In this document: positions 14,214-64,000 of the stretch, piece by piece
How the letters are laid out: every line of letters begins with the position of its first letter
How positions within the stretch are numbered: position 1 is the first letter of the stretch
Source of the DNA: an uncultured Gammaproteobacteria bacterium
Lineage (GTDB): Bacteria > Pseudomonadota > Gammaproteobacteria > Eutrophobiales > Eutrophobiaceae
DNA length: 64,000 bases
Direction of reading: 5' to 3'
Assembly: GCA_951812995.1 (NCBI GenBank)
Contig: CATOTD010000006.1
Span: 124,001 to 188,000, forward strand
The notes under the pieces: model-generated
Databases searched by the model: none
Told to the model about the DNA's origin: nothing
The model's input: the letters and a program-made list of their open reading frames with translations, nothing else
Translations under genes and position numbers: made by a program

Positions 14214-15029
14214 TCAGTCAATATCGATAACGATAGCCGTTACATTATCACCAGCACCGCGCTCCAATGTCAGTGCGATCATCTCTTTACAAACGGTCTC
14301 TGTAGTACCTTTTAGTAACATTTCATGAAATTCAAAATCTTTTATGTGTTTAGTCAGACCATCGCTACAAAGCAGGTAACGATCGCCTTTTTTCATCTCT
14401 TGAATATCCATATCCAGAAAAAAATTCGGGGTAACACCTACCGCACGTGTGATCACATTTCCATGTGGGTGGACGGCCGCTTCTTCTCTGGTCATGAGTC
14501 CCCATGCTACATATTCTTCAACATGTGAATGGTCAGTCGTCATTTGCCGTAATTCATCATCGCGTAAGCGGTATAAGCGACTATCTCCAACCCAAAAATA
14601 GGCACAATATATATCATACGCAAGCATCATGGCAACCGTGCTGCCAATTATTGCGGTACGCTTGGTTTCTCCATTTTCTTTATCTATTAATCTTGCCTTG
14701 TTGATTAATTTATTATTAATGGTGATAAAAATATCTTCTATAGTATCGATATAGTTGCTAAGAGAAAGTCCTGCGCGGATTTTCTTGAAGGTATTCACAA
14801 TCATCTGACTTGCGACATCACCCGCGTCATGACCACCCATACCATCGGCGACTATCCATATTCCAGCTTCAGGCATTTCCAACATGGAGTCTTCATTATA
14901 CTTGCGGGCATTCCCTACGTCGGTAATGCCATAGGAGCTGTATGAAAACGATTTTGTAAGGTTTTTCTCGTCAGGATAGGGCATAACAATACTATTATTC
15001 ACCCCGATTTCAGGCAGGCTCCAATACAA
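14214..15029 (-). CDS. PP2C-family protein serine/threonine phosphatase
   Basis: 271 residues from the longest start. The metal-dependent PP2C fold is marked by the expected acidic motifs: ARKYNEDS, WIVADGMGGHDAGD, FWVGDSRLYRLR, LLCSDGLTKHI and the C-terminal GAGDNVTAIVIDID. This is the bacterial PrpC/Stp type and is soluble. It should dephosphorylate the kinase encoded 36 nt downstream, or that kinase's targets. The longest start is TTG 15029, overlapping the cyclase gene by 20 nt. GTG 15002, just past the upstream stop, and ATG 14984 are alternatives, and the sequence does not decide between them. Overlap or tight spacing with both neighbours supports translational coupling in one operon. 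Confidence 0.93.
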   Translation of the reverse strand: MYWSLPEIGVNNSIVMPYPDEKNLTKSFSYSSYGITDVGNARKYNEDSMLEMPEAGIWIVADGMGGHDAGDVASQMIVNTFKKIRAGLSLSNYIDTIEDIFITINNKLINKARLIDKENGETKRTAIIGSTVAMMLAYDIYCAYFWVGDSRLYRLRDDELRQMTTDHSHVEEYVAWGLMTREEAAVHPHGNVITRAVGVTPNFFLDMDIQEMKKGDRYLLCSDGLTKHIKDFEFHEMLLKGTTETVCKEMIALTLERGAGDNVTAIVIDID

Positions 15030-19870: not shown

Positions 19871-22800
19871 GTGAGTAGAAAAAGAAAAATGGGTATGCAG
19901 GCGCAAAGCGTTTATGCACCGTTTAGGTTGAATCCAGTTGCGGCCTTCATACGTACCTCATTGCCTGCGAGTTTATTCTTGAGTTTGTATAGTGCGAATG
20001 TTGTTGCACAGACAACGCCACTACTGCCTAATTTTCAATCTACCAATTCAGTGTTTACGCAAACCGGTGGGCATGGCCTTATCAACTCGCCCACAGTGGC
20101 AGGACATGGCGTAGCGGATTCGATCGCCATTCCTGAACGCCAATCGCTCACAATTAAGCAAGCTACAAATGCACACTATGCCCTAGATAGCAGGAGCAGT
20201 GGTCTCTTGCCAGAGCAGATATTAGGTGATCTTAATTCGCCAGGTAGCGTTACGCTTTTTGCCGCCAATGGCATCCTGATTGGCTCCAAGTCTACCATTA
20301 ACGTTAATTCATTATTGGCCACGAGCCTGCGCTCATCGGATGCTGGCGATTTCCGGCAAGGCAAGCATCTGTATTTCAATCCGGATGGTAGCGAAGGTGC
20401 CCCGGTCGTAAACCAGGGCACCATCAACGCGGCCGCCGGTGGTTCCGTCACCTTGCTCGGTGGTGCTGTCAGCAATGCAGGCACGATTTTGGCGACTGCC
20501 GGCCAGGTCAATCTGGTCGCTGGCAAAAAAATCGCTATGGATTTCGATGGCGATGGCTTGATGCGTTTCACTGTCAATGAAGCCGTATTGAAAAATGCCG
20601 AGGGTCTTGCTGAGGCCGTATCAAACACTGGCACGATACAGAGTAGCAGTGTCTTATTGGAAGGCAAGGTCGCAAAAGATGTTTTCACCCATGTAGTGAA
20701 TAACCAGGGCGTGATAACGGCCGGCCGCATTGACAAACATGGCGGCAGCATACGGTTGGTTGCTGGCGGTGCTGGCAATTCACTGATCAATACTGGCACC
20801 TTAAATGCCGCCGGGGTCGGCGGTGATGGTGGTAGCGTTCATATTTACGCAGACGACACCGCTATTATCAGCGGTGATAGCGTTATCACGGCGGCATCGA
20901 CAACCGCAAAGGGCGGCACGGTGCAGGTGCTAGGCGACAAAGTAGGCCTGTTTGACAACACGTCGATCGATATCTCGGGCAAGATGGGCGGGGGTGTTGT
21001 GTTAGTGGGCGGCGATTATCAGGGGCAGAACGACGACATCAAAAACGCGTCTTATACCGCCGTCGGTCGTGATACGACGATCAACGTCGATGCAACGGCC
21101 AACGGTGATGGCGGCAAGGCCATTATCTGGGCTGATAAAACCACTCGTTTTTATGGCGACATCAGCGCGCAGGGTGGCGTGCAAGGCGGCGATGGCGGGT
21201 TTGTCGAGGTCTCGGGCAAAGAGAGCCTGGTCTTTCGTGGCGCGGTCAATACCCGTGCGACCAAGGGCGACACTGGCCAGTTATTACTGGACCCGACTGA
21301 TATTGTTATTGCTAACGGGACGGCTGCTACAGATGATACCGAAATCAGTGATAGCACGATTGCCTTTGCCGATGCGGGTGCTACCTTTACCATCAGCGAG
21401 GACGCACTGGAAAAACTTACGACCAATATTACCCTGCAAGCCACCAATTCCATCGCGATGAGTGATCTCACAGATGACGAATTGACTCTCAGTACCAATG
21501 GCGACGTAAGTTTCAGGGCCGGTGCGGGTGGCTTTACGATGGTGGATGCGAACGACACGATTCGTATCACTGGTACCGGTACTTTATCGATTAATACAAT
21601 CAATTCAGCCGATTTTAACACCGGATTACCCCGTGGCGGCGGCACGGGTGATGGCGAGATCACTGTCGGCTCGTTGGTGACGGGCGTGGGTGGAAACATC
21701 ACGCTGACCGGCACTGTCATCACTGTTAATGGCAACATTACTACGGGCGCGGTTGATGCGGTTAATGCCAGTTCGGGCAAGATCACGCTGACGGCCGAAA
21801 CAGGCGCAGTGACGCTGAACGGAAATCTCGCAACGGGCGATGCTAAAAGCAAGGGTAGCGGCGGGGGTAATGATGAGGCCGCCGAGAGTGGTGAAATCAG
21901 CATAAGCGCATTCACAACGCTAACCGGCACCGGCACCATCACCACTGGCGATGCGACCGTTAATGCGGCCGGCGGGGGTAATGATACGGCGACGACCGGC
22001 GACATCGGTATTCAAGTGTACGGCGTGGGTATTGCAGCGGGTGTTAGTGCTATTCAGGTCGGCAAGATGACCATTGGTAATGCGATAGTCGAAAACGCTG
22101 GTGACACGAACGACACGGCAACATCTGGAGATATCGTGTTAGTTGCTGCCTATAACGGCAATATCGGCACCGATGCGGCGATTCGTCAGGCGGTTCATAT
22201 TGGTTCTGCTACCGGCACTGGCACCACAACAAGGGGTGCCGCAGAATTTTACGGACTCAATAATATATACCTGTCAACAGATACCACGCTGACTATCTCT
22301 GGTCTGCAAACGGCGGCGAGTGCCAATACGATCGATATTCTGGCGAATGTCGGTGCCAATGTCATTTTGACCGGCGTGGATGGCTCGCCCACCTTGAATG
22401 GCTATACCAATCTCAACACTGACAACTTTACGGTCAACGGCCCCGGCACAGTCTCTTTCACAAATACGCCGTTTTCCGTTGGCAGTGTCGAGATCTGGGG
22501 CAGTGCCACGCTGGGCGTGGATATCACAACCACGGGCAACCAGATATACAGGGGCGCGGTCACCTTGAGCGGGTCCGACCGCACGCTTATCGCTGGCACC
22601 AACACGGTGACCTTCAGCGGCGGCATCACTGGTGATAGCAAAACCCTGACGATAGGTGAGACTGGTGCCGGGAAAGCCAGCAAGCTGAGGTTGACTACAA
22701 AGGCCGCGACCGGCCTTGCCAGCCTGTTGGTCTATGGCATCAGCACGCTCGGCGCGAATGTCACAACCACGGGTGCACAGGAATATACGGGTGCGGTAAC

Positions 22801-31800: not shown

Positions 31801-34800
31801 GCTCATCGCTGGCTCTGGTACGGTGCTCTTCAGCGACGGTATCACCGGTGGTGGCTTTGCCCTGACGATAGGCGACAGTACGCGCGCCAGCAAGCTGACA
31901 CTGCGTAATACAGCCGCCACTGGCCTTGACAGCTTGTTTGTCTATGGCCGGACCACGCTCGCCGCGGATGTGATGACCACGAACGCACAGACCTATACGG
32001 GTGAAGTGAGGCTGGATAGTGGCGTGACCTTGACCGGCACCACGGGCACCTTTACGGCGGGCGTGAAAGGTGTCAACAATGATCTCACCCTGAACTACAG
32101 CGCGGACACGACGATAGACGGCGACACTGTCTTTCAGAACATCAAGAACCTGACTACCGGTGGCGGTGGCACGACACAACTGACCGGCACGATTGAGACC
32201 TCAGGCACGCAGACCTACAACGATGTGGTAGTGCTGAGTGGCGATACCAAATTATTTGCTGACACCAACAACATTACTTTCAACAACACGGTTGATTCCA
32301 CGGCGGGCAACCATGACTTACAGATTGGCCGTGCCGCGACATCGAGCAGTACCGCGATTCTCAGTAACCTGGTCATCAATCGTGCTGTCGGTGCGGCTGG
32401 TGCTGCTAATAGCCCACCAACCAACACGACACTCGGCGACCTGACTGTCTATGGCACGAGCACGCTGGGCGCAAACATCACGACCACAGGCAACCAGACC
32501 TATAACGATGCGGTGACGCTGACGGGTGGTACTGTCTTATTGGCTGGTAGCAACACAGTGACCTTTAACGGCGGTATCACCGGTGGTGGTTTTGCCCTGA
32601 CGATTGGTGCGGTAGGTGTTGGGAATGACAGCAAGCTGATTTTGAATCAACCGCCGCCCGCGAACCCACCTCCCGTGAATCCACCGCCACCGGTCACCGC
32701 CACCGGCCTTGCCAGCTTGCGTGTCTATGGCGAGAGCACGCTCGGCGCGAATGTCACCAGCACGGGTACACAGACCTACACCGGGGCTGTGACCTTGAGT
32801 GGTGCGGCACGGACATTGACGGCAAGGAATGGCGCGGGTGTATTGCAAACAGTGTGGTTTGGGTCCACGGTTGATGGTGGCACCCAGGCCTTGAGCATTA
32901 CCGGCAATCTGGACTTAGACGGTACGGCCACCAACCTTGCCACTCTGACGGTATCGGGCGAGAGCAATCTCGGCGCAAATGTCACAACCACGGGCAACCA
33001 GACCTACCACGATGCGGTGACCTTGAGTAGTGCCGTGACTTTGGCGGGCACGGACATACAACTGGTAGCTGGTGTTAATGGCGGACAGACCTTGTCCATT
33101 ACCGGAAATTTAGACTTAGACGGTGCCGCCGGTGCTACCACGTCATTGACCAGTCTTGCGGTATCGGGCACCAGTAACCTGGGTGCGAATGTCACGACCA
33201 CGGGCACACAGACCTATAGGGATTTAGTCACCTTTAGTGCCGGTGCAACGCTGACGGCAAAGAATAGCGCGGATGTGTTGCAAACGGTACGGTTTGCGAA
33301 GACCGGCCGTGCGGTTGATGGCGGACAGGCGGTGACCTTGGACGGCAACCTGGACTTGGACGGTGAGATTGGGAGGCTTGCCACATTAAGGGTAACGGGT
33401 ACCAGCAATCTCAACGGGGATGTCATAACCACGGGCGACCAGACCTACACGGGTGCAGTAACGCTGAGTAGCAATACCATCTTATCGGCACGCACCAATA
33501 CGGTGACGTTTAGCGGCGGTATCACGGGTGGTGGTAACACGTTGACGGTGGGTGCTGCCGGTAATGCAAACGCCGCAAGCAAACTGACGTTGACTACGAC
33601 GGCCGCGACGGGTCTTGCCAGCCTGTTTGTCTATGGCACCAGCGACCTCGGCGCAAATGTCGAGACCACGGGCATACAGACCTATAACGATGCGGTGGCG
33701 CTAAGTAGTGATGTCATCTTGACCGGCACCACGGGCACCTTTACCGGGGGTGTGGATGGCACCAACACCGGCGGCACCAACTATAATTTAACCTTGAACT
33801 ACAGCGGTCTTACGACGATTAACGGTAACACTGTCTTTGACAACATCAATAACCTAGAAACGGGTGGCGGTGGTACGACTAACCTGACCGGCGATATTAC
33901 AACCTCGGGCACGCAGACCTATAGGGATACAGTAACACTAACGGGTGCCACTACCCTGGAAGGCACGACCATACAACTGATAGGTAGTGTTGATGGCGGA
34001 CAAACCTTGGCCATTACCGGCATTCTGGACTTAGACGGTATTATCGGTGGGACCACGGCCTTGACCAGTCTTACGGTATCGGGCACCAGCGACCTGGGTG
34101 CAGATGTCACAACCACGGGCGACCAGACCTACACGGGGGCTGTAACCTTGAGTGGTGCGGCACGGACATTGACGGCAAGGAATGGCGCGGGTGTATTGCA
34201 AACGGTGTGGTTTGGGTCAACGGTTGATGGTGGCACCCAGGACTTGACCATTACCGGTAATCTGGACTTAGACGGTACGGCCACCAACCTTACCACTCTG
34301 ACGGTATCGGGCGAGAGTAATCTCGGCGCAAATGTCGAGACCACGGGCATACAGACCTATAACGATGCGGTGGCGCTAAGTAGTGATGTCATCTTGACCG
34401 GCACCACGGGCACCTTTACCGCGGGGGTGGATGGCACCAACGCCGGCGGCACCAACTATAATTTAACCTTGAACTACAGCGGTCTTACGACGATAGACGG
34501 TAACACTGTCTTTGACAACATCAATAACCTGGAAACGGGTGGCGGTGGTACGACTAACCTGACCGGCGATATTACAACCTCGGGCACGCAGACCTATAGG
34601 GATGCGGTAACACTGACGGGTGTCACTACCCTGGTCGGCACGACCATACAACTGATAGGTAGTGTTGATGGCGGACAAACCTTGGCCATTACCGGCATTC
34701 TGGACTTAGACGGTATTATCGGTGGGACCACGGCCTTGACCAGTCTTACGGTATCGGGCACCAGCGACCTGGGTGCAGATGTCACAACCACGGGCGACCA

Positions 34801-37800
34801 GACCTACACGGGGGCTGTAACCTTGAGTGGTGCGGCACGGACATTGACGGCAAGGAATGGCGCGGGTGTATTGCAAACGGTGTGGTTTGGGTCAACGGTT
34901 GATGGTGGCACCCAGGACTTGACCATTACCGGTAATCTGGACTTAGACGGTACGGCCACCAACCTTACCACTCTGACGGTATCGGGCGAGAGTAATCTCG
35001 GCGCAAATGTCACCAGCACGGGTACACAGACCTACACGGGTAAGGTGACGCTAAGTAGTGACGTCACCTTGACCGGCACCACGGGCACCTTTACCGCGGG
35101 GGTGGACGGCACCAACACCGGCGGCACCAACTATAATTTAACCTTGAACTACAGCGGTCTTACGACGATTAACGGTAACACTGTCTTTGACAACATCAAT
35201 AACCTAGAAACGGGTGGCGGTGGTACGACTAACCTGACCGGCGATATTACAACCTCGGGCACGCAGACCTATAGGGATACAGTAACACTAACGGGTGCCA
35301 CTACCCTGGAAGGCACGACCATACAACTGATAGGTAGTGTTGATGGCGGACAAACCTTGGCCATTACCGGCATTCTGGACTTAGACGGTATTATCGGTGG
35401 GACCACGGCCTTGACCAGTCTTACGGTATCGGGCACCAGCGACCTGGGTGCAGATGTCACAACCACGGGCGACCAGACCTACACGGGGGCTGTAACCTTG
35501 AGTGGTGCGGCACGGACATTGACGGCAAGGAATGGCGCGGGTGTATTGCAAACGGTGTGGTTTGGGTCAACGGTTGATGGTGGCACCCAGGACTTGACCA
35601 TTACCGGTAATCTGGACTTAGACGGTACGGCCACCAACCTTGCCACTCTGACGGTATCGGGCACCAGCGACCTCGGCGCAAATGTCGAGACCACGGGCAT
35701 ACAGACCTATAACGATGCGGTGGCGCTAAGTAGTGATGTCATCTTGACCGGCACCACGGGCACCTTTACCGGGGGTGTGGATGGCACCAACACCGGCGGC
35801 ACCAACTATAATTTAACCTTGAACTACAGCGGTCTTACGACGATTAACGGTAACACTGTCTTTGACAACATCAATAACCTAGAAACGGGTGGCGGTGGTA
35901 CGACTAACCTGACCGGCGATATTACAACCTCGGGCACGCAGACCTATAGGGATACAGTAACACTAACGGGTGCCACTACCCTGGAAGGCACGACCATACA
36001 ACTGATAGGTAGTGTTGATGGCGGACAAACCTTGGCCATTACCGGCATTCTGGACTTAGACGGTATTATCGGTGGGACCACGGCCTTGACCAGTCTTACG
36101 GTATCGGGCACCAGCGACCTGGGTGCAGATGTCACAACCACGGGCGACCAGACCTACACGGGGGCTGTAACCTTGAGTGGTGCGGCACGGACATTGACGG
36201 CAAGGAATGGCGCGGGTGTATTGCAAACGGTGTGGTTTGGGTCAACGGTTGATGGTGGCACCCAGGCCTTGAGCATTACCGGTAATCTGGACTTAGACGG
36301 TACGGCCACCAACCTTACCACTCTGACGGTATCGGGCGAGAGTAATCTCGGCGCAAATGTCACCAGCACGGGTACACAGACCTACACGGGTAAGGTGACG
36401 CTAAGTAGTGACGTCACCTTGACCGGCACCACGGGCACCTTTACCGCGGGGGTGGACGGCACCAACACCGGCGGCACCAACTATAATTTAACCTTGAACT
36501 ACAGCGGTCTTACGACGATTAACGGTAACACTGTCTTTGACAACATCAATAACCTAGAAACGGGTGGCGGTGGTACGACTAACCTGACCGGCGATATTAC
36601 AACCTCGGGCACGCAGACCTATAGGGATACAGTAACACTAACGGGTGCCACTACCCTGGAAGGCACGACCATACAACTGATAGGTAGTGTTGATGGCGGA
36701 CAAACCTTGGCCATTACCGGCATTCTGGACTTAGACGGTATTATCGGTGGGACCACGGCCTTGACCAGTCTTACGGTATCGGGCACCAGCGACCTGGGTG
36801 CAGATGTCACAACCACGGGCGACCAGACCTACACGGGGGCTGTAACCTTGAGTGGTGCGGCACGGACATTGACGGCAAGGAATGGCGCGGGTGTATTGCA
36901 AACGGTGTGGTTTGGGTCAACGGTTGATGGTGGCACCCAGGACTTGACCATTACCGGTAATCTGGACTTAGACGGTACGGCCACCAACCTTGCCACTCTG
37001 ACGGTATCGGGCGCCAGCGACCTCGGCGCAAATGTCGAGACCACGGGCATACAGACCTATAACGATGCGGTGGCGCTAAGTAGTGATGTCATCTTGACCG
37101 GCACCACGGGCACCTTTACCGCGGGGGTGGATGGCACCAACGCCGGCGGCACCAACTATAATTTAACCTTGAACTACAGCGGTCTTACGACGATTAACGG
37201 TAACACTGTCTTTGACAACATCAATAACCTGGAAACGGGTGGCGGTGGTACGACTAACCTGACCGGCGATATTACAACCTCGGGCACGCAGACCTATAGG
37301 GATACAGTAACACTAACGGGTGCCACTACCCTGGAAGGCACGACCATACAACTGATAGGTAGTGTTGATGGCGGACAAACCTTGGCCATTACCGGCATTC
37401 TGGACTTAGACGGTATTATCGGTGGGACCACGGCCTTGACCAGTCTTACGGTATCGGGCACCAGCGACCTGGGTGCAGATGTCACAACCACGGGCGACCA
37501 GACCTACACGGGGGCTGTAACCTTGAGTGGTGCGGCACGGACATTGACGGCAAGGAATGGCGCGGGTGTATTGCAAACGGTGTGGTTTGGGTCAACGGTT
37601 GATGGTGGCACCCAGGACTTGACCATTACCGGTAATCTGGACTTAGACGGTACGGCCACCAACCTTGCCACTCTGACGGTATCGGGCGCCAGCGACCTCG
37701 GCGCAAATGTCGAGACCACGGGCATACAGACCTATAACGATGCGGTGGCGCTAAGTAGTGATGTCATCTTGACCGGCACCACGGGCACCTTTACCGCGGG

Positions 37801-48700: not shown

Positions 48701-51700
48701 AACCTAGAAACGGGTGGCGGTGGTACGACTAACCTGACCGGCGATATTACAACCTCGGGCACGCAGACCTATAGGGATACAGTAACACTAACGGGTGCCA
48801 CTACCCTGGAAGGCACGACCATACAACTGATAGGTAGTGTTGATGGCGGACAAACCTTGGCCATTACCGGCATTCTGGACTTAGACGGTATTATCGGTGG
48901 GACCACGGCCTTGACCAGTCTTACGGTATCGGGCACCAGCGACCTGGGTGCAGATGTCACAACCACGGGCGACCAGACCTACACGGGGGCTGTAACCTTG
49001 AGTGGTGCGGCACGGACATTGACGGCAAGGAATGGCGCGGGTGTATTGCAAACGGTGTGGTTTGGGTCAACGGTTGATGGTGGCACCCAGGACTTGAGCA
49101 TTACCGGTAATCTGGACTTAGACGGTACGGCCACCAACCTTACCACTCTGACGGTATCGGGCGAGAGTAATCTCGGCGCAAATGTCACCAGCACGGGTAC
49201 ACAGACCTACACGGGTAAGGTGACGCTAAGTAGTGACGTCACCTTGACCGGCACCACGGGCACCTTTACCGCGGGGGTGGACGGCACCAACACCGGCGGC
49301 ACCAACTATAATTTAACCTTGAACTACAGCGGTCTTACGACGATTAACGGTAACACTGTCTTTGACAACATCAATAACCTAGAAACGGGTGGCGGTGGTA
49401 CGACTAACCTGACCGGCGATATTACAACCTCGGGCACGCAGACCTATAGGGATACAGTAACACTAACGGGTGCCACTACCCTGGAAGGCACGACCATACA
49501 ACTGATAGGTAGTGTTGATGGCGGACAAACCTTGGCCATTACCGGCATTCTGGACTTAGACGGTATTATCGGTGGGACCACGGCCTTGACCAGTCTTACG
49601 GTATCGGGCACCAGCGACCTGGGTGCAGATGTCACAACCACGGGCGACCAGACCTACACGGGGGCTGTAACCTTGAGTGGTGCGGCACGGACATTGACGG
49701 CAAGGAATGGCGCGGGTGTATTGCAAACGGTGTGGTTTGGGTCAACGGTTGATGGTGGCACCCAGGACTTGACCATTACCGGTAATCTGGACTTAGACGG
49801 TACGGCCACCAACCTTGCCACTCTGACGGTATCGGGCGCCAGCGACCTCGGCGCAAATGTCGAGACCACGGGCATACAGACCTATAACGATGCGGTGACG
49901 CTAAGTAGTGACGTCACCTTGACCGGCACCACGGGCACCTTTACCGCGGGGGTGGACGGCACCAACACCGGCGGCACCAACTATAATTTAACCTTGAACT
50001 ACAGCGGTCTTACGACGATAGACGGTAACACTGTCTTTGACAACATCAATAACCTAGAAACGGGTGGCGGTGGTACGACTAACCTGACCGGCGATATTAC
50101 AACCTCGGGCACGCAGACCTATAGGGATACAGTAACACTAACGGGTGCCACTACCCTGGAAGGCACGACCATACAACTGATAGGTAGTGTTGATGGCGGA
50201 CAAACCTTGGCCATTACCGGCATTCTGGACTTAGACGGTATTATCGGTGGGACCACGGCCTTGACCAGTCTTACGGTATCGGGCACCAGCGACCTGGGTG
50301 CAGATGTCACAACCACGGGCGACCAGACCTACACGGGGGCTGTAACCTTGAGTGGTGCGGCACGGACATTGACGGCAAGGAATGGCGCGGGTGTATTGCA
50401 AACGGTGTGGTTTGGGTCAACGGTTGATGGTGGCACCCAGGACTTGACCATTACCGGTAATCTGGACTTAGACGGTACGGCCACCAACCTTACCACTCTG
50501 ACGGTATCGGGCGAGAGTAATCTCGGCGCAAATGTCACCAGCACGGGTACACAGACCTACACGGGTAAGGTGACGCTAAGTAGTGACGTCACCTTGACCG
50601 GCACCACGGGCACCTTTACCGCGGGGGTGGACGGCACCAACACCGGCGGCACCAACTATAATTTAACCTTGAACTACAGCGGTCTTACGACGATTAACGG
50701 TAACACTGTCTTTGACAACATCAATAACCTAGAAACGGGTGGCGGTGGTACGACTAACCTGACCGGCGATATTACAACCTCGGGCACGCAGACCTATAGG
50801 GATACAGTAACACTAACGGGTGCCACTACCCTGGAAGGCACGACCATACAACTGATAGGTAGTGTTGATGGCGGACAAACCTTGGCCATTACCGGCATTC
50901 TGGACTTAGACGGTATTATCGGTGGGACCACGGCCTTGACCAGTCTTACGGTATCGGGCACCAGCGACCTGGGTGCAGATGTCACAACCACGGGCGACCA
51001 GACCTACACGGGGGCTGTAACCTTGAGTGGTGCGGCACGGACATTGACGGCAAGGAATGGCGCGGGTGTATTGCAAACGGTGTGGTTTGGGTCAACGGTT
51101 GATGGTGGCACCCAGGACTTGACCATTACCGGTAATCTGGACTTAGACGGTACGGCCACCAACCTTGCCACTCTGACGGTATCGGGCGCCAGCGACCTCG
51201 GCGCAAATGTCGAGACCACGGGCATACAGACCTATAACGATGCGGTGGCGCTAAGTAGTGATGTCATCTTGACCGGCACCACGGGCACCTTTACCGCGGG
51301 GGTGGATGGCACCAACGCCGGCGGCACCAACTATAATTTAACCTTGAACTACAGCGGTCTTACGACGATAGACGGTAACACTGTCTTTGACAACATCAAT
51401 AACCTGGAAACGGGTGGCGGTGGTACGACTAACCTGACCGGTACGATTACAACCTCGGGCACGCAGACCTATAGGGATGCGGTAACACTGACGGGTGTCA
51501 CTACCCTGGTCGGCACGACCATACAACTGATAGGTAATGTTGATGGCGGACAAACCTTGGCCATTACCGGCATTCTGGACTTAGACGGTATTATCGGTGG
51601 GACCACGGCCTTGACCAGTCTTACGGTATCGGGCACCAGCGACCTGGGTGCAGATGTCACAACCACGGGCGACCAGACCTACACGGGGGCTGTAACCTTG

Positions 51701-54700
51701 AGTGGTGCGGCACGGACATTGACGGCAAGGAATGGCGCGGGTGTATTGCAAACGGTGTGGTTTGGGTCAACGGTTGATGGTGGCACCCAGGACTTGACCA
51801 TTACCGGTAATCTGGACTTAGACGGTACGGCCACCAACCTTACCACTCTGACGGTATCGGGCGAGAGTAATCTCGGCGCAAATGTCACCAGCACGGGTAC
51901 ACAGACCTACACGGGTAAGGTGACGCTAAGTAGTGACGTCACCTTGACCGGCACCACGGGCACCTTTACCGCGGGGGTGGACGGCACCAACACCGGCGGC
52001 ACCAACTATAATTTAACCTTGAACTACAGCGGTCTTACGACGATTAACGGTAACACTGTCTTTGACAACATCAATAACCTAGAAACGGGTGGCGGTGGTA
52101 CGACTAACCTGACCGGCGATATTACAACCTCGGGCACGCAGACCTATAGGGATACAGTAACACTAACGGGTGCCACTACCCTGGAAGGCACGACCATACA
52201 ACTGATAGGTAGTGTTGATGGCGGACAAACCTTGGCCATTACCGGCATTCTGGACTTAGACGGTATTATCGGTGGGACCACGGCCTTGACCAGTCTTACG
52301 GTATCGGGCACCAGCGACCTGGGTGCAGATGTCACAACCACGGGCGACCAGACCTACACGGGGGCTGTAACCTTGAGTGGTGCGGCACGGACATTGACGG
52401 CAAGGAATGGCGCGGGTGTATTGCAAACGGTGTGGTTTGGGTCAACGGTTGATGGTGGCACCCAGGACTTGACCATTACCGGTAATCTGGACTTAGACGG
52501 TACGGCCACCAACCTTGCCACTCTGACGGTATCGGGCGCCAGCGACCTCGGCGCAAATGTCGAGACCACGGGCATACAGACCTATAACGATGCGGTGGCG
52601 CTAAGTAGTGATGTCATCTTGACCGGCACCACGGGCACCTTTACCGCGGGGGTGGATGGCACCAACGCCGGCGGCACCAACTATAATTTAACCTTGAACT
52701 ACAGCGGTCTTACGACGATTAACGGTAACACTGTCTTTGACAACATCAATAACCTGGAAACGGGTGGCGGTGGTACGACTAACCTGACCGGCGATATTAC
52801 AACCTCGGGCACGCAGACCTATAGGGATGCGGTAACACTGACGGGTGTCACTACCCTGGTCGGCACGACCATACAACTGATAGGTAATGTTGATGGCGGA
52901 CAAACCTTGGCCATTACCGGCATTCTGGACTTAGACGGTATTATCGGTGGGACCACGGCCTTGACCAGTCTTACGGTATCGGGCACCAGCGACCTGGGTG
53001 CAGATGTCACAACCACGGGCGACCAGACCTACACGGGGGCTGTAACCTTGAGTGGTGCGGCACGGACATTGACGGCAAGGAATGGCGCGGGTGTATTGCA
53101 AACGGTGTGGTTTGGGTCAACGGTTGATGGTGGCACCCAGGACTTGACCATTACCGGTAATCTGGACTTAGACGGTACGGCCACCAACCTTACCACTCTG
53201 ACGGTATCGGGCGAGAGTAATCTCGGCGCAAATGTCACCAGCACGGGTACACAGACCTACACGGGTAAGGTGACGCTAAGTAGTGACGTCACCTTGACCG
53301 GCACCACGGGCACCTTTACCGCGGGGGTGGACGGCACCAACACCGGCGGCACCAACTATAATTTAACCTTGAACTACAGCGGTCTTACGACGATTAACGG
53401 TAACACTGTCTTTGACAACATCAATAACCTGGAAACGGGTGGCGGTGGTACGACTAACCTGACCGGTACGATTACAACCTCGGGCACGCAGACCTATAGG
53501 GATGCGGTAACACTGACGGGTGTCACTACCCTGGTCGGCACGACCATACAACTGATAGGTAGTGTTGATGGCGGACAAACCTTGGCCATTACCGGCATTC
53601 TGGACTTAGACGGTATTATCGGTGGGACCACGGCCTTGACCAGTCTTACGGTATCGGGCACCAGCGACCTGGGTGCAGATGTCACAACCACGGGCGACCA
53701 GACCTACACGGGGGCTGTAACCTTGAGTGGTGCGGCACGGACATTGACGGCAAGGAATGGCGCGGGTGTATTGCAAACGGTGTGGTTTGGGTCAACGGTT
53801 GATGGTGGCACCCAGGACTTGACCATTACCGGTAATCTGGACTTAGACGGTACGGCCACCAACCTTACCACTCTGACGGTATCGGGCGAGAGTAATCTCG
53901 GCGCAAATGTCGAGACCACGGGCATACAGACCTATAACGATGCGGTGGCGCTAAGTAGTGATGTCATCTTGACCGGCACCACGGGCACCTTTACCGCGGG
54001 GGTGGATGGCACCAACGCCGGCGGCACCAACTATAATTTAACCTTGAACTACAGCGGTCTTACGACGATAGACGGTAACACTGTCTTTGACAACATCAAT
54101 AACCTGGAAACGGGTGGCGGTGGTACGACTAACCTGACCGGCGATATTACAACCTCGGGCACGCAGACCTATAGGGATACAGTAACACTAACGGGTGCCA
54201 CTACCCTGGAAGGCACGACCATACAACTGATAGGTAGTGTTGATGGCGGACAAACCTTGGCCATTACCGGCATTCTGGACTTAGACGGTATTATCGGTGG
54301 GACCACGGCCTTGACCAGTCTTACGGTATCGGGCACCAGCGACCTGGGTGCAGATGTCACAACCACGGGCGACCAGACCTACACGGGGGCTGTAACCTTG
54401 AGTGGTGCGGCACGGACATTGACGGCAAGGAATGGCGCGGGTGTATTGCAAACGGTGTGGTTTGGGTCAACGGTTGATGGTGGCACCCAGGACTTGACCA
54501 TTACCGGTAATCTGGACTTAGACGGTACGGCCACCAACCTTACCACTCTGACGGTATCGGGCGAGAGTAATCTCGGCGCAAATGTCACCAGCACGGGTAC
54601 ACAGACCTACACGGGTAAGGTGACGCTAAGTAGTGACGTCACCTTGACCGGCACCACGGGCACCTTTACCGCGGGGGTGGACGGCACCAACACCGGCGGC

Positions 54701-56300
54701 ACCAACTATAATTTAACCTTGAACTACAGCGGTCTTACGACGATTAACGGTAACACTGTCTTTGACAACATCAATAACCTAGAAACGGGTGGCGGTGGTA
54801 CGACTAACCTGACCGGCGATATTACAACCTCGGGCACGCAGACCTATAGGGATACAGTAACACTAACGGGTGCCACTACCCTGGAAGGCACGACCATACA
54901 ACTGATAGGTAGTGTTGATGGCGGACAAACCTTGGCCATTACCGGCATTCTGGACTTAGACGGTATTATCGGTGGGACCACGGCCTTGACCAGTCTTACG
55001 GTATCGGGCACCAGCGACCTGGGTGCAGATGTCACAACCACGGGCGACCAGACCTACACGGGGGCTGTAACCTTGAGTGGTGCGGCACGGACATTGACGG
55101 CAAGGAATGGCGCGGGTGTATTGCAAACGGTGTGGTTTGGGTCAACGGTTGATGGTGGCACCCAGGACTTGACCATTACCGGTAATCTGGACTTAGACGG
55201 TACGGCCACCAACCTTGCCACTCTGACGGTATCGGGCGCCAGCGACCTCGGCGCAAATGTCGAGACCACGGGCATACAGACCTATAACGATGCGGTGGCG
55301 CTAAGTAGTGATGTCATCTTGACCGGCACCACGGGCACCTTTACCGCGGGGGTGGATGGCACCAACGCCGGCGGCACCAACTATAATTTAACCTTGAACT
55401 ACAGCGGTCTTACGACGATAGACGGTAACACTGTCTTTGACAACATCAATAACCTGGAAACGGGTGGCGGTGGTACGACTAACCTGACCGGTACGATTAC
55501 AACCTCGGGCACGCAGACCTATAGGGATGCGGTAACACTGACGGGTGTCACTACCCTGGTCGGCACGACCATACAACTGATAGGTAATGTTGATGGCGGA
55601 CAAACCTTGGCCATTACCGGCATTCTGGACTTAGACGGTATTATCGGTGGGACCACGGCCTTGACCAGTCTTACGGTATCGGGCACCAGCGACCTGGGTG
55701 CAGATGTCACAACCACGGGCGACCAGACCTACACGGGGGCTGTAACCTTGAGTGGTGCGGCACGGACATTGACGGCAAGGAATGGCGCGGGTGTATTGCA
55801 AACGGTGTGGTTTGGGTCAACGGTTGATGGTGGCACCCAGGACTTGACCATTACCGGTAATCTGGACTTAGACGGTACGGCCACCAACCTTACCACTCTG
55901 ACGGTATCGGGCGAGAGTAATCTCGGCGCAAATGTCACCAGCACGGGTACACAGACCTACACGGGTAAGGTGACGCTAAGTAGTGACGTCACCTTGACCG
56001 GCACCACGGGCACCTTTACCGCGGGGGTGGACGGCACCAACACCGGCGGCACCAACTATAATTTAACCTTGAACTACAGCGGTCTTACGACGATTAACGG
56101 TAACACTGTCTTTGACAACATCAATAACCTAGAAACGGGTGGCGGTGGTACGACTAACCTGACCGGCGATATTACAACCTCGGGCACGCAGACCTATAGG
56201 GATACAGTAACACTAACGGGTGCCACTACCCTGGAAGGCACGACCATACAACTGATAGGTAGTGTTGATGGCGGACAAACCTTGGCCATTACCGGCAATC
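33640..56300 (+). repeat. 675-bp (225-aa) near-identical tandem array in tpsA, about 33.6 copies
   Basis: Equivalent points recur at exactly 675 bp from about 33.9 kb to 56.2 kb (33 periods). Each unit has three sub-blocks: a Gly/Thr-rich block with NYNLTLNYSGLTTI and VFDNINNLETGGGGTT; a block with TTIQLIGSVDGGQTLAITG; and a block with GAARTLTARNGAGVLQTVWF. Units differ by a few linked variants. The only length-changing differences are the five indels at 45711-46442. Confidence 0.97.
45707..46442 (+). other. Cluster of five indels with zero net length change in tpsA
   Basis: Compared with neighbouring units: CCCA is duplicated at about 45711-45718 (+4). One base is missing at each of about 45879 (ACCGCACC for ACCGGCACC), 45930 (GGCACAAC for GGCACCAAC), 46020 (GGCGTGG for GGCGGTGG) and 46440 (ACCTGCC for ACCTTGCC). 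The four losses all shorten a two-base homopolymer. The total is zero, so the original frame returns at 46442. Confidence 0.93.
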
Positions 56301-59300
56301 TGGACTTAGACGGTATTATCGGTGGAGGCACGGCCTTGACCAGTCTTACGGTATCGGGCACCAGCGACCTGGGTACAGATGTCACAACCACGGGCGACCA
56401 GACCTACACCGGGGCTGTGACCTTGAGTGGTGGTGACCGCATCCTCATCGCTGGCACCAACGACATTACTTTCAGTAGTACGGTTGATTCTGCAGCTACT
56501 ACCAACCATGGCTTAACAATAGGCCGTGCTGGTAGTCGCAGTAACCTGGTCATTGATGGCGCAGTCGGTGACACCCAGGCACTCGGCAGTCTTAGGGTAT
56601 CGGGCACCAGTAACCTGGGTGCGAATGTCACGACCACGGCAGGCCAGACCTACACTGGGGCTGTAACCTTGAGTAGTGCCGTGACTTTGGCGGGCACAGA
56701 CATACAACTGGTAGCTGGTGTTAATGGCGCACAGGCCTTGACCATTACCGGCAATCTGGACTTAGACGGTGCTGCCACGGGTCTTACCAGTCTTGCGGTA
56801 TCGGGCACCAGCACGCTCGGCGCGGATGTCACGACCACGGCAGGCCAGACCTACACTGGGGCTGTGACCTTGAGTAGTGCCACTACCCTGGAAGGCACGA
56901 CCATACAACTGATAGGTGATGTTGATGGCGGACAAACCTTGGCCATTACCGGCATTCTGGACTTAGACGGTACCGTCGGTGGGACCACGGCCTTGACCAG
57001 TCTTACGGTATCGGGCACCAGCGACCTGGGTGCAAATATCACAACCACGGGCATACAGACCTACACGAGGGCTGTGACCTTGAGTGGTGGTAACCGCATC
57101 CTCATCGCTGGTACCAACAACATCACCTTCAGCAACACGGTTGATTCTGCAGCTACTACCAACCATGGCTTAACCATAGGCAGTACTGGTAGTCGCAGTA
57201 ACCTGGTCATTGATGGCGCAGTCGGTGACACCCAGGCACTCGGCAGTCTTACGGTATGGGGCACCAGCGACCTCGGCGCAAATGTCACAACGCTCACACC
57301 TGCCACACCCCCGCCGGGGATTGCGGATGGCAAACAGACCTACACGGGTGCGGTAACGCTAAGTAGTGATGTCACCTTGACCGGCACCACGGGTAGCTTT
57401 AGCACTGTGGATGGTAACAACCCCGGCGGCACCAACTATAATTTAACCTTGAACTACAGCGGTCTTACGACGATAGACGGTAACACTGTCTTTGACAACA
57501 TCAATAACCTGGAAACGGGTGGCGGTGGTACGACTAACCTGACCGGTACGATTACAACCTCGGGCACGCAGACCTATAGGGATACGGTAACACTGACGGG
57601 TGCCACTACCCTGACCGGCACGACCATACAACTGATAGGTAATGTTGATGGCGGACAAACCTTGGCCATTACCGGCGATTTAGACTTAGACGGTACCGTC
57701 GGTGGAGGCACGGACTTGACCAGTCTTACGGTATCAGGCACCAGTAACCTGGGTGCAGATGTTACGACCACGGGCATACAGACCTACACCGGGGCTGTGA
57801 CCTTGAGTGGTGGTAACCGCATCCTCATCGCTGGCACCAGCAACATCACCTTCAGCAACACGGTTGATTCCGAGGCGGGTAACAACCATGACTTAACCAT
57901 AGGTCGTGCTGCGACAACATCGCCGACCATCATTACCGCGATACGCAGTAAGCTGGTCTTAAACGGTGCGGTCGGTGACACCCAGGCACTCGGCAGTCTT
58001 ACGGTATGGGGCACCAGCGATCTTGCCGCTAACATCACGACCATGGGCGCGCAGACCTACACGGGGGCGGTAACGCTACGTAGTGCGGTGACCTTGACCG
58101 GTAGTGATACGGGTACCTTTGCCGGGGGTGTGACCGGCAACAACCATGATTTAACCTTGAACTACAGCGGCCTTACGACGATTAACGGTGTTGCTGTATT
58201 TAGCGGTGTCAAAGACCTGACCACGGGTAATGGTGGCACGACACAACTGACTGGCACGATTACAACCTTGGGCACGCAGACCTATGGTGATGCTGTAACG
58301 CTAAGTGGTAATACCACCTTATTGGCTGGCACCAACAACATCACCTTCAGCAACACGGTTGATTCCGAGGCGGGTAACAACTATGACTTAACCATAGGCA
58401 GTGCTGTGATACGCAGTAAGCTGGTCTTAAACGGCGCAGTCGGTGCTACCACGGCACTCGGCAGTCTTACGGTATGGGGCACCAGCGATCTTGCCGCTAA
58501 CATCACGACCATGGGCGCGCAGACCTACACGGGGGCGGTAACGCTACGTAGTGCGGTGACCTTGACCGGTAGTGATACGGGTACCTTTGCCGGGGGTGTG
58601 ACCGGCAACAACCATGATTTAACCTTGAACTACAGCGGCCTTACGACGATTAACGGTGTTGCTGTATTTAGCGGTGTCAAAGACCTGACCACGGGTAATG
58701 GTGGCACGACACAACTGACTGGCACGATTACAACCTTGGGCACGCAGACCTATGGTGATGCTGTAACGCTAAGTGGCAATACCACCTTATTGGCTGGCAC
58801 CAACAACATCACCTTTAACAACACGGTTGATTCCGCAGTTACTACCAACCATGACTTAACCATAGGCAGTGCTGTGATACGCAGTAAGCTGGTCTTAAAC
58901 GGTGCGGTCGGTGACACCACGGCACTCGGCAGTCTTACGGTATGGGACACCAGCGACCTCGGCGCAGATGTCACAACCACCGATACGCAGACCTATACGG
59001 GTGCGGTAACGCTAAGTAGTGACGTCACCTTGACCGGTAGTGATACGGGTACCTTTGCCGGGGGTATGACCGGCAACAACCATGATTTAACCTTGAACTA
59101 CAGCGGCCTTACGACGATTAACGGTGTTGCTGTATTTAGCGGTGTCAAAGACCTGACCATGGGTAATGGTGGCACGACACAACTGACTGGTACGATTACA
59201 ACCACCGGCACGCAGACCTATGGTGATGCTGTAACGCTAAGTGGTAATACCACCTTATTGGCTGGCACCAACAACATCACCTTCAACAACACGGTTAATT

Positions 59301-62300
59301 CCGCAACTGGTACCAACCATAACTTAACGATAGGCCGTGCTGCGACAACATCGCCGACCATCATTACCGCGATACGCAGTAAGCTGGTCTTAAACGGTGC
59401 GGTCGGTGACGCCCAGGCACTCGGCAGTCTTACGGTACAAGGCACCAGCGATCTTGCCGCTAACATCACGACCATGGGCGCGCAGACCTACACGGGGGCG
59501 GTAACGCTACGTAGTGCGGTGACCTTGACCGGTAGTGATACGGGTACCTTTGCCGGGGGTGTGACCGGCAACAACCATGATTTAACCTTGAACTACAGCG
59601 GCCTTACGACGATTAACGGTGTTGCTGTATTTAGCGGTGTCAAAGACCTGACCACGGGTAATGGTGGCACGACACAACTGACTGGCACGATTACAACCAC
59701 CGGCACGCAGACCTATGGTGATGCAGTAACGCTAAGTGGCAATACCACCTTATTGGCTGGCACCAACAACATCACCTTCAACAACACGGTTGATTCCGCA
59801 ACTGGTACCAACCATAACTTAACGATAGGCCGTGCTGCGACAACATCGCCGACCATCATTACCGCGATACTCAGTAAGCTGGTCTTAAACGGCGCAGTCG
59901 GTACGACCCGGCCACTCGGCAATCTTACGGTACAAGGCACCAGCGATCTTGCCGCTAACATCACGACCATGGGCGCGCAGACCTACACGGGGGCGGTAAC
60001 GCTACGTAGTGCGGTGACCTTGACCGGTAGTGATACGGGTACCTTTGCCGGGGGTGTGACCGGCAACAACCATGATTTAACCTTGAACTACAGCGGCCTT
60101 ACGACGATTAACGGTGTTGCTGTATTTAGCGGTGTCAAAGACCTGACCACGGGTAATGGTGGCACGACACAACTGACTGGCACGATTACAACCACCGGCA
60201 CGCAGACCTATGGTGATGCAGTAACGCTAAGTGGCAATACCACCTTATTGGCTGGCACCAACAACATCACCTTTAACAACACGGTTGATTCTGCAGTGGG
60301 TAACAACTATGACTTAACCATAGGCCGTGCTGCGACAACATCGCCGACCATCATTACCGCGATACGCAGTAAGCTGGTCTTAAACGGCGCAGTCGGTGCG
60401 ACCCGGCCACTCGGCAATCTTACGGTACAAGGCACCAGCGATCTTGCCGCTAACATCACAACCATGGGCGCGCAGACCTACACGGGTGCGGTAACGCTAC
60501 GTAGTGCGGTGACCTTGACCGGTAGTGATACGGGTACCTTTGCCGGGGGTGTGACCGGCAACAACCATGATTTAACCTTGAACTACAGCGGCCTTACGAC
60601 GATTAACGGTGTTGCTGTATTTAGCGGTGTCAAAGACCTGACCACGGGTAATGGTGGCACGACACAACTGACTGGCACGATTACAACCTTGGGCACGCAG
60701 ACCTATGGTGATGCAGTAACGCTAAGTGGCAATACCACCTTATTGGCTGGCAGCAACAACATCACCTTTAACAACACGGTTGATTCCGAGGCGGGTAACA
60801 ACCATGACTTAACTATAGGCAGTGCTGGTAGTCGCAGTAACCTGTTCATCGATGGCGTAGTCGGTGCGACCCGGCCACTCGGCAATCTTACGGTACAAGG
60901 CACCAGCGATCTTGCCGCTAACATCACAACCACGGGCGCGCAGACCTACACGGGTGCGGTAACGCTACGTAGTGCGGTAACCTTGACCGGTAGTGATACG
61001 GGTACCTTTGCCGGGGGTGTGACCGGCAACAACCATGATTTAACCTTGAACTACAGCGGCCTTACGACGATTAACGGTGTTGCTGTATTTAGCGGTGTCA
61101 AAGACCTGACCACGGGTAATGGTGGCACGACACAACTGACTGGCACGATTACAACCTTGGGCACGCAGACCTATGGTGATGCAGTAACGCTAAGTGGCAA
61201 TACCACCTTATTGGCTGGCACCAACAACATCACCTTCAACAACACGGTTGATTCCGCAACTGGTACCAACCATAACTTAACCATAGGCCGTGCTGCGACA
61301 ACATCGCCGACCATCATTACCGCGATACTCAGTAAGCTGGTCTTAAACGGCGTAGTCGGTGCGACCCGGCCACTCGGCAGTCTTACGGTACAAGGCACCA
61401 GCGACTTCGCCGCTAACATCACAACCATGGGCGCGCAGACCTACACGGGTGCGGTAACGCTACGTAGTGCGGTAACCTTGACCGGTAGTGATACGGGTAC
61501 CTTTGCCGGGGGTGTGACCGGCAACAACCATGATTTAACCTTGAACTACAGCGGCCTTACGACGATTAACGGTGTTGCTGTATTTAGCGGTGTCAAAGAC
61601 CTGACCACGGGTAATGGTGGCACGACACAACTGACTGGCACGATTACAACCTTGGGCACGCAGACCTATGGTGATGCTGTAACGCTAAGTGGCAATACCA
61701 CCTTATTGGCTGGCACCAACAACATCACCTTTAACAACACGGTTGATTCCGCAGTTACTACCAACCATGACTTAACCATAGGCAGTGCTGTGATACGCAG
61801 TAAGCTGGTCTTAAACGGTGCGGTCGGTGACACCACGGCACTCGGCAGTCTTACGGTATGGGACACCAGCGACCTCGGCGCAGATGTCACAACCACCGAT
61901 ACGCAGACCTATACGGGTGCGGTAACGCTAAGTAGTGACGTCACCTTGACCGGTAGTGATACGGGTACCTTTGCCGGGGGTATGACCGGCAACAACCATG
62001 ATTTAACCTTGAACTACAGCGGCCTTACGACGATTAACGGTGTTGCTGTATTTAGCGGTGTCAAAGACCTGACCATGGGTAATGGTGGCACGACACAACT
62101 GACTGGTACGATTACAACCACCGGCACGCAGACCTATGGTGATGCTGTAACGCTAAGTGGTAATACCACCTTATTGGCTGGCACCAACAACATCACCTTC
62201 AACAACACGGTTAATTCCGCAACTGGTACCAACCATAACTTAACGATAGGCCGTGCTGCGACAACATCGCCGACCATCATTACCGCGATACGCAGTAAGC

Positions 62301-64000
62301 TGGTCTTAAACGGTGCGGTCGGTGACGCCCAGGCACTCGGCAGTCTTACGGTACAAGGCACCAGCGATCTTGCCGCTAACATCACGACCATGGGCGCGCA
62401 GACCTACACGGGGGCGGTAACGCTACGTAGTGCGGTGACCTTGACCGGTAGTGATACGGGTACCTTTGCCGGGGGTGTGACCGGCAACAACCATGATTTA
62501 ACCTTGAACTACAGCGGCCTTACGACGATTAACGGTGTTGCTGTATTTAGCGGTGTCAAAGACCTGACCACGGGTAATGGTGGCACGACACAACTGACTG
62601 GCACGATTACAACCACCGGCACGCAGACCTATGGTGATGCAGTAACGCTAAGTGGCAATACCACCTTATTGGCTGGCACCAACAACATCACCTTCAACAA
62701 CACGGTTGATTCCGCAACTGGTACCAACCATAACTTAACGATAGGCCGTGCTGCGACAACATCGCCGACCATCATTACCGCGATACTCAGTAAGCTGGTC
62801 TTAAACGGCGCAGTCGGTACGACCCGGCCACTCGGCAATCTTACGGTACAAGGCACCAGCGATCTTGCCGCTAACATCACGACCATGGGCGCGCAGACCT
62901 ACACGGGGGCGGTAACGCTACGTAGTGCGGTGACCTTGACCGGTAGTGATACGGGTACCTTTGCCGGGGGTGTGACCGGCAACAACCATGATTTAACCTT
63001 GAACTACAGCGGCCTTACGACGATTAACGGTGTTGCTGTATTTAGCGGTGTCAAAGACCTGACCATGGGTAATGGTGGCACGACACAACTGACTGGTACG
63101 ATTACAACCACCGGCACGCAGACCTATGGTGATGCAGTAACGCTAAGTGGCAATACCACCTTATTGGCTGGCACCAACAACATCACCTTCAACAACACGG
63201 TTGATTCCGCAACTGGTACCAACCATAACTTAACGATAGGCCGTGCTGCGACAACATCGCCGACCATCATTACCGCGATACTCAGTAAGCTGGTCTTAAA
63301 CGGCGTAGTCGGTGCGACCCGGCCACTCGGCAATCTTACGGTACAAGGCACCAGCGATCTTGCCGCTAACATCACAACCATGGGCGCGCAGACCTACACG
63401 GGTGCGGTAACGCTACGTAGTGCGGTAACCTTGACCGGTAGTGATACGGGTACCTTTGCCGGGGGTATGACCGGCAACAACCATGATTTAACCTTGAACT
63501 ACAGCGGCCTTACGACGATTAACGGTGTTGCTGTATTTAGCGGTGTCAAAGACCTGACCACGGGTAATGGTGGCACGACACAACTGACTGGTACGATTAC
63601 AACCACCGGCACGCAGACCTATGGTGATGCTGTAACGCTAAGTGGTAATACCACCTTATTGGCTGGCACCAACAACATCACCTTCAACAACACGGTTAAT
63701 TCCGCAACTGGTACCAACCATAACTTAACGATAGGCCGTGCTGCGACAACATCGCCGACCATCATTACCGCGATACTCAGTAAGCTGGTCTTAAACGGCG
63801 CAGTCGGTACGACCCGGCCACTCGGCAATCTTACGGTACAAGGCACCAGCGATCTTGCCGCTAACATCACGACCATGGGCGCGCAGACCTACACGGGGGC
63901 GGTAACGCTACGTAGTGCGGTGACCTTGACCGGTAGTGATACGGGTACCTTTGCCGGGGGTGTGACCGGCAACAACCATGATTTAACCTTGAACTACAGC
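46442..64000 (+). CDS. Continuation of the giant TpsA exoprotein, open at the right edge
   Basis: The frame used from 19871 (codons starting at positions 2 mod 3) is restored at 46442 and, wherever I checked, runs without a stop to base 64000: 5,853 codons. There is no start codon, ribosome site or promoter at its beginning, which is mid-repeat, so it is not an independent gene. Content: 14-15 more 225-residue units (to about 56300), a diverged bridge (56300-58050, with a proline insert TPATPPPGIADG near 57295), then 156/165-residue units (TLRSAVTLTGSDTGTFAGGV, NNHDLTLNYSGLTTINGVAV, TQTYGDAVTLSGNTTLLAG). With the indels corrected the gene has at least 14,710 codons in this window. If the frameshift is real, this part is untranslated pseudogene sequence. 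Confidence 0.82.
58052..64000 (+). repeat. Second tpsA array, 468-bp and 495-bp units
   Basis: Unit starts (CAG of the Q-T-Y motif) fall at 58052, 58520, 58988, 59483, 59978, 60473, 60941, 61436, 61904, 62399, 62894, 63389 and 63884: twelve full units (four of 468 bp, eight of 495 bp) plus a partial one. The extra 27 bp encodes nine residues around ATTSPTIIT. About 1.6 kb from 58560 is nearly identical to 61476 onward, an offset of 2,916 bp. The array continues past the window. Confidence 0.95.

What the first reader, a model, noticed from the sequence alone, without database searches (positions are those of the whole stretch)
19871..64000. One TpsA gene of at least 14,710 codons, not a gene ending at 45739
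The frame from 19871 ends at 45739 only because of a +4 duplication. Four -1 deletions in the next 730 bp bring the sum to exactly zero, and the same frame is then open to the right edge. Deletions confined to two-base homopolymers, packed into one unit of an otherwise indel-free 22-kb array, look like a low-quality assembly seam. If so, this would be among the larger predicted bacterial proteins, and its C-terminus is not yet seen.
Basis: partly seen in the sequence, partly recalled or inferred. Interest (0 to 1): 0.88.

Follow-up and report, generated by a model that had tools for sequence, protein, structure and literature searches.

The report
Giant two-partner adhesin with assembly seam
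The apparent gene end at 45,739 is almost certainly a patch of bad sequence inside one 67,000-base gene for a thread-like bacterial surface protein of about 22,400 amino acids; its missing C-terminus lies just outside the window and matches that of shorter, uninterrupted versions in related bacteria.

Summary
The frame from 19871 stops at 45739. One 4-bp duplication and four single-base losses in 732 bp sum to zero, and the same frame then stays open to the window edge. On the parent contig it continues to a stop at window coordinate 87046: 67,176 nt, 22,391 codons if read as one frame.

Three results favour one gene. (1) The three off-length repeat units carry no substitution of their own; the other 29 of 32 units are exactly 675 bp. 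(2) The genome holds one TPS domain, one TpsB and one TpsA C-terminal domain, and the two TpsA ends flank the seam. (3) In six relatives the same two ends share one uninterrupted frame (4.5-12.7 k aa).

It is most likely a cell-anchored, beta-solenoid TpsA adhesin of about 2.2 MDa. Its only two cysteines form a conserved C-x5-C near the C-terminus, resembling the HMW1/CdrA anchor. Two recent tandem arrays (about 16,100 aa) make it giant; the rest (about 6,300 aa) is ordinary for this family.

It is not the largest TpsA: a 29,206-aa TPS frame exists in another gammaproteobacterium. Raw reads were unavailable, so the error reading is inferred and array copy number is unproven.

The parts
16290..17321 (+). 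Parvulin-type peptidyl-prolyl isomerase, a possible periplasmic chaperone for the exported chain; conserved upstream of TpsB in the relatives examined
   Evidence: PF00639 E 6.3e-14; the same gene order in related loci
17676..19640 (+). TpsB outer-membrane transporter (654 aa), the only one in the genome
   Evidence: ShlB PF03865 E 2.9e-21, POTRA_2 PF08479 E 1.5e-8; single locus in the genome
19871..45739 (+). First open piece of the tpsA gene (8,622 codons): leader, TPS domain, beta-solenoid repeats, up to the seam
   Evidence: the GTG start aligns with the ATG of orthologs
20210..20770 (+). TPS (secretion) domain
   Evidence: PF05860 46.3 bits, cut-off 33.5; model matches the EtpA secretion domain 8cpk at E 2.9e-14
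34242..55842 (+). Tandem array 1: 32 units of 675 bp (225 aa), 22 distinct; mosaic of two-state variants at 42 columns
45711..46442 (+). Seam: one 4-bp duplication and four single-base losses, net zero; no private substitutions; lies 9-12 kb from either unique flank of the array
46412..64000 (+). Second open piece of the same frame. It continues outside the window to a stop at window coordinate 87046 (contig C6:211046), 13,544 aa in all, and ends in the conserved C-terminal anchor domain
58022..64000 (+). Tandem array 2 (495/468-bp units), continuing outside the window to about 84746; every unit length divisible by three

Best explanation
One tpsA gene (window 19871 to 87046, 67,176 nt, 22,391 codons as assembled) encodes a cell-anchored filamentous exoprotein of the two-partner secretion type. 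Five clustered indels at 45.7-46.4 kb are local consensus errors in the middle of a near-identical repeat array. Proposed working: the N-terminal TPS domain docks on the neighbouring TpsB; the almost cysteine-free repeat chain is threaded through the barrel and folds outside as a long beta-solenoid; a C-terminal domain with the only two cysteines (C-x5-C) forms a periplasmic disulfide plug that keeps the fibre attached. A 186-aa secreted paralog of that domain, encoded in overlap with the tpsA stop, probably acts with the plug. The giant size comes from recent amplification of two modules (225 aa x 32; 165/156 aa x about 53) in a backbone of about 6,300 aa. Shown: continuity of the frame, single N/C/TpsB set, orthologous single frames, conserved C-x5-C, TPS fold. 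Inferred: sequencing error as cause, anchoring, adhesion, role of the paralog.
For: Frame open to 87046 in the same phase. Five indels in 732 bp and none detected in the other 66 kb, P about 7e-8. The three affected units have no private substitutions, and two are identical to other units once gaps are ignored. One TPS domain, one TpsB and one C-terminal domain in the genome. The repeat occurs nowhere else in the assembly. Single uninterrupted frames join both ends in six relatives: 12,665, 6,172, 5,722, 5,424, 4,646 and 4,548 aa. N-terminus 41-43% identical over about 940 aa and C-terminus 42-45% over about 740 aa to two orthologs, with shared neighbours. TPS fold; solenoid repeat model at pLDDT 91.5. 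Only 2 cysteines in 22,166 residues, both in the C-x5-C, which is conserved in 19 of 19 loci that cover it. Precedent for disulfide-plug anchoring: PMC5422565, PMC3297439, PMC7616799.
Against: No reads were available, so the indels cannot be called false directly. Unit u45721 carries a variant combination seen in no other unit, so the bridge itself may be chimeric. The NPNG motif, described as crucial for TpsA secretion (PMC5422565), is AANG here. The variants among array units are only mildly enriched for synonymous change in the proposed frame. No direct evidence for expression, anchoring or adhesion.
Confidence: 0.87

Rival explanations
1. The indels are real. The gene was recently broken, and the sequenced population makes at most an 8,622-aa protein without an anchor; the downstream 13,544 codons are a decaying remnant.
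For: The stop at 45739 is in the assembly. A burst of error-prone repair synthesis in a tandem array could in principle give several short indels close together (inference).
Against: Zero private substitutions in the affected units. No stop or frame loss in 13,544 downstream codons. The C-terminal domain keeps 56-66% identity to same-genus orthologs that cover it nearly whole. The net shift is exactly zero.
Confidence: 0.07
2. One gene, but the array is mis-sized: the assembler bridged the array with one poor read or an overlap between look-alike units, so units were gained or lost and the true protein is not 22,391 aa. (Compatible with the best explanation except for the exact length.)
For: The seam lies well inside the array. 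Exact repeats reach 2,380 bp. The bridging unit has a unique variant mosaic.
Against: 22 of 32 units in array 1 and 44 of 51 intervals in array 2 are distinct, so the array is not one unit copied. No repeat sequence is stranded on another contig. The second, longer array shows no seam.
Confidence: 0.3
3. Two separate genes: a TpsA ending near 45739 and a second repeat protein starting near 46520.
For: ORF callers will list two ORFs.
Against: The second piece has no leader, TPS domain or TpsB of its own; the genome has only one of each. Both pieces share the same 675-bp array in register. Six relatives have one frame.
Confidence: 0.02
4. A CdiA-type contact-dependent inhibition protein that delivers a C-terminal toxin.
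For: CdiA proteins are also very large TpsA proteins (180-650 kDa, PMC5422565).
Against: The C-terminal domain is conserved in 20 loci over many genera (about 41-66% identity), not a variable toxin. The following gene is a conserved paralog of the domain itself, not a variable immunity gene.
Confidence: 0.03

Closest known systems
HMW1/HMW1B and HxuA of Haemophilus influenzae (cell-anchored TpsA)
   Same: TPS domain fold (2odl, 4i84 hits), a TpsB partner, a cysteine pair near the C-terminus that in HMW1 forms a disulfide plug in the transporter (PMC5422565, PMC3297439)
   Different: About 2.2 MDa here; the cysteine pair sits about 210 residues before the end in a charged domain with no Pfam or PDB relative found; NPNG motif degenerate; a paralog of the anchor domain follows in the operon
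CdrA/CdrB of Pseudomonas aeruginosa
   Same: TpsA adhesin held at the cell by a C-terminal cysteine hook (PMC7616799)
   Different: 220 kDa and about 70 nm long (PMC7616799); CdrA is released by the periplasmic protease LapG (PMC5422565), and no LapG homolog (PF06035) was found in this genome
EtpA of enterotoxigenic E. coli
   Same: Best sequence and fold match of the TPS region (8vba E 3.8e-71 with profile A1; 8cpk); beta-helix repeats
   Different: Far shorter (1,564 residues in 8vba)
Orthologous TpsA genes of the same GTDB family (OFTM147 12,659 aa; PRO17 4,643 aa; others 4.5-6.2 k aa)
   Same: TPS domain and C-x5-C end domain in one frame, downstream paralog; in OFTM147 and PRO17 also the same neighbouring genes
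   Different: Little or no near-exact tandem repetition in the four measured (0-3% repeated 24-mers)
Chlorobium chlorochromatii Cag_0614/Cag_0616 and the Velamenicoccus 39,678-aa ORF
   Same: Giant predicted surface proteins (36,805, 20,646 and 39,678 aa; PMC4053972, PMC10066038)
   Different: Described as RTX/hemagglutinin-like or membrane-spanning; not described there as TPS substrates

Membership tests
TpsA exoproteins (two-partner secretion) | N-terminal TPS domain above the curated cut-off | tested here: met
   PF05860 46.3 bits against 33.5; orthologs OFTM147 and PRO17 110 and 60 bits
TpsA exoproteins (two-partner secretion) | TPS domain fold | tested here: met
   AlphaFold model, mean pLDDT 67.8 with a well-predicted core; 8cpk E 2.9e-14, 2odl E 4.8e-11
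TpsA exoproteins (two-partner secretion) | Cognate TpsB gene next to it | tested here: met
   17676-19640, ShlB plus POTRA_2
TpsA exoproteins (two-partner secretion) | Conserved NPNG motif in the TPS domain | tested here: not met
   AANG here and AQNG in PRO17; NPNG in the other five orthologs aligned. Highly conserved but not by itself the family definition
TpsA exoproteins (two-partner secretion) | Long beta-helical repeat region | tested here: met
   Two-unit model pLDDT 91.5, all beta; Z 15-17 to TPS adhesins among Foldseek candidates. Foldseek alone gave no E below 0.001
TpsA exoproteins (two-partner secretion) | Sec signal peptide | tested here: inconclusive
   A hydrophobic leader shared by all orthologs is visible in the alignment; no predictor was available
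Cell-anchored TpsA (HMW1/CdrA type) | C-terminal cysteine pair | tested here: met
   C-x5-C in 19 of 19 loci that cover it; the only cysteines of this protein
Cell-anchored TpsA (HMW1/CdrA type) | Disulfide forms and plugs the TpsB pore | not testable with these tools
   needs biochemistry
CdrA-type regulated release | LapG periplasmic protease in the genome | tested here: not met
   no PF06035 match in the genome, which is about 99% complete
CdiA toxins | Variable C-terminal toxin followed by a variable immunity gene | tested here: not met
   conserved C-terminal domain and conserved paralog downstream in 20 loci

The most novel reading that the evidence does not exclude
The cell makes an intact 22,391-residue, roughly 2.2-MDa single polypeptide, exported through one TpsB barrel as a fibre of about half a micrometre. 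It is held by a so far undescribed C-x5-C anchor domain together with a dedicated third partner, a secreted paralog of that domain. Its length changes quickly by gain and loss of 225-aa and 165/156-aa modules.
Probability: 0.45. Interest if true: 0.7.

Novelty: new variant of a known kind. Interest (0 to 1): 0.55.

Why it matters
It shows that a gene call which looks finished can be cut in two by a few consensus errors in a repeat array, and that relatives can go far towards settling this without raw reads. If the size holds, this TpsA is more than three times the upper mass given for the family (about 650 kDa, PMC5422565), which raises the question of how far one outer-membrane barrel can thread a chain. 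The conserved C-x5-C end domain and its small secreted paralog are a testable, apparently undescribed anchoring module present across this bacterial family, with its first half also found in TpsA frames of other gammaproteobacteria.

Tried and rejected
Two family scans failed on a wrong frame and one anchor pattern for array 2 found nothing; both were redone. Pfam and NCBIfam hits on repeat or C-terminal pieces (Peptidase_C47 1.1e-6, DUF3301, enoyl-CoA hydratase, Cob_adeno_trans and others) are short, mostly under cut-off, or compositional, and were rejected. Peptidase_C47 passes its cut-off, but three repeat-sized matches in threonine/glycine-rich beta repeats are not a protease. hmmscan did not report PF05860 on the first 500 aa, although the genome search, a profile search of PDB and the fold search did. 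Foldseek alone gave no strong match for the repeat unit. The C-terminal domain has no PDB relative by sequence. CdiA toxin, two-gene and pseudogene readings were considered and rejected as argued. Paper searches on giant TPS proteins in sponge or Thiotrichaceae symbionts found nothing.

Full report
What was claimed.

The ORF 19871-45739 (8,622 aa) and a frame open to the right edge are present. The window is G000:C6:124001-188000 of a 345,339-bp contig. Reading on, the frame that begins at 19871 reopens after 46411 and stays open to a stop at window coordinate 87046. That is 67,176 nt, or 22,391 codons plus stop as one frame, in two open pieces of 8,622 and 13,544 aa. The other two forward frames carry 23-26 stops per kb over the same stretch.

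The seam. Array 1 runs 34242-55842 as 32 units of 675 bp. Units 45042, 45721 and 46393 are 679, 672 and 674 bp, summing to exactly 2,025, so the register before and after is the same. The events are one 4-bp tandem duplication and four single-base losses, each in a two-base run. None of the three units has a private substitution, and two of them match other units exactly once gaps are ignored. A real history of mutation would be expected to leave substitutions too; consensus errors of long-read assemblies are mostly indels (own knowledge). Five random indels in a gene of this length would fall within 735 bp with a probability of about 7e-8. The seam lies about 12 kb from the left and 9 kb from the right edge of the array, where poorly anchored reads would be expected.

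One gene, shown by relatives. The genome has one TPS domain, one TpsB, and one C-terminal domain plus its small paralog; the 675-bp repeat occurs only inside this gene. A genome-contig scan with the TpsB found loci in uncultured gammaproteobacteria (Thiotrichaceae UBA973, OFTM147, PRO17 and others). Two were read in full: OFTM147 (12,659 aa) and PRO17 (4,643 aa) have an uninterrupted tpsA directly after TpsB. Their N-termini are 41-43% identical to ours over about 940 aa, and their C-termini 42-45% over about 740 aa. Both ends also share one frame in four more genomes: 6,172, 5,722, 5,424 and 4,548 aa. The neighbourhood in the two read in full is conserved: kinase, PP2C and cyclase/FHA genes on the other strand, then PPIase, TpsB, TpsA, a small secreted ORF, a SapC-family gene (PF07277) and LeuC. 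The neighbouring genes of the window are intact at lengths close to those of the relatives, so the assembly is not generally indel-ridden here.

Why it is giant. Array 1 (7,200 aa) and array 2 (58.0-84.7 kb, 495/468-bp units, about 8,900 aa) account for about 16,100 residues; the remaining 6,283 or so are in the normal range of the family. Four orthologs checked have 0-3% repeated 24-mers. The array-1 units are mosaics of two states at 42 columns, a pattern of unequal exchange or gene conversion (inference). With 22 of 32 and 44 of 51 units distinct, the arrays are not one unit duplicated by the assembler, but exact repeats up to 2,380 bp and the seam leave copy number open.

What it is. The TPS domain passes the curated cut-off (46.3 against 33.5 bits). 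A profile of seven orthologs finds EtpA, an adhesin entry (2odl, the HMW1 secretion domain) and HxuA in PDB, and the model matches the EtpA secretion domain. The NPNG hallmark is AANG here and AQNG in PRO17, NPNG in five others. A two-unit repeat model is confidently all-beta (pLDDT 91.5) and aligns with TPS beta-helices at Z 15-17 among the Foldseek candidates. The two open pieces total about 2.2 MDa and hold only two cysteines, both in a C-x5-C about 210 residues from the end. That motif (AQCE..EGCAP) is conserved, with its two cysteines, in 19 of 19 loci covering it. In HMW1 a disulfide loop near the C-terminus plugs the TpsB pore, HxuA is expected to do the same (PMC5422565, PMC3297439), and CdrA is held by a cysteine hook (PMC7616799). 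I infer the same mode of anchoring here. The domain has no Pfam or PDB relative by sequence. Its first half recurs in other gammaproteobacteria, twice in a frame that also holds a TPS domain (4,083 and 6,402 aa). In 20 of 20 loci a paralog of about 160-260 codons with the same cysteine pair follows at once; in the window genome it overlaps the tpsA stop. A third partner of the anchor is the simplest guess. No LapG homolog was found, so CdrA-like release is not supported.

Length. Scaling from CdrA (220 kDa, 70 nm; PMC7616799) gives about 700 nm; 4.8 Angstrom per coil of about 22 residues gives about 490 nm (own knowledge). Either is an inference.

How new. TpsA proteins are reviewed as about 100-650 kDa (PMC5422565), so 2.2 MDa is outside that range. 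It is not the record: in a sample of 369 genomes of the class, G105 has a 29,206-aa TPS frame and G158 an 18,106-aa one, each in a single-contig genome and with few exact repeats. Giant bacterial proteins of other kinds reach 36,805 and 39,678 aa (PMC4053972, PMC10066038). Signal peptides were reported to be unlikely above 20,000 aa (PMC11573180), which makes a secreted example of this size of some interest.

Limits. No raw reads, no second assembly of this species and no expression data were available. The seam as error is an inference, strong for the reading frame and weaker for the exact number of units.

Noticed in passing
contig G000:C6 about 211036-211596 (L003:5036-5596), outside the window: A 186-aa secreted ORF overlapping the tpsA stop is a paralog of the TpsA C-terminal domain with the same C-x5-C; a homolog follows the domain in 20 of 20 loci examined.
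   Followed up: partly
L053-L057 (G105:C1:290030 onward): A 29,206-aa uninterrupted frame with a TPS domain in a single-contig 1.93-Mb gammaproteobacterial genome, nearly free of exact repeats and without any cysteine; longer than the window's gene.
   Followed up: partly
L058-L060 (G158:C1): An 18,106-aa TPS frame ending in the same type of C-terminus as the G105 protein (LPxWLxFxPxxxxFTGQ), a second kind of giant TpsA end.
   Followed up: no
20261-20272: The NPNG hallmark of the TPS domain is AANG in this protein and AQNG in PRO17, both with the same divergent surroundings (LPEQILG); two TPS domain types seem to alternate at one orthologous locus.
   Followed up: no
34242-55842: The 32 units vary at only 42 columns, nearly all two-state and in linked blocks, as if two unit types had recombined repeatedly with almost no new point mutation.
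   Followed up: partly
2504-9006, minus strand: Several transposase genes or remnants (Mutator family, DDE_Tnp_1) lie upstream of the locus.
   Followed up: no
9660-15918, minus strand: A conserved divergent cluster of a Ser/Thr kinase with an FGE-sulfatase domain, a PP2C phosphatase and an adenylate cyclase/FHA protein stays next to the TPS operon in the related loci; it might regulate it.
   Followed up: partly
13613-13925: In-frame 108-bp and 39-bp tandem repeats inside the kinase gene.
   Followed up: no
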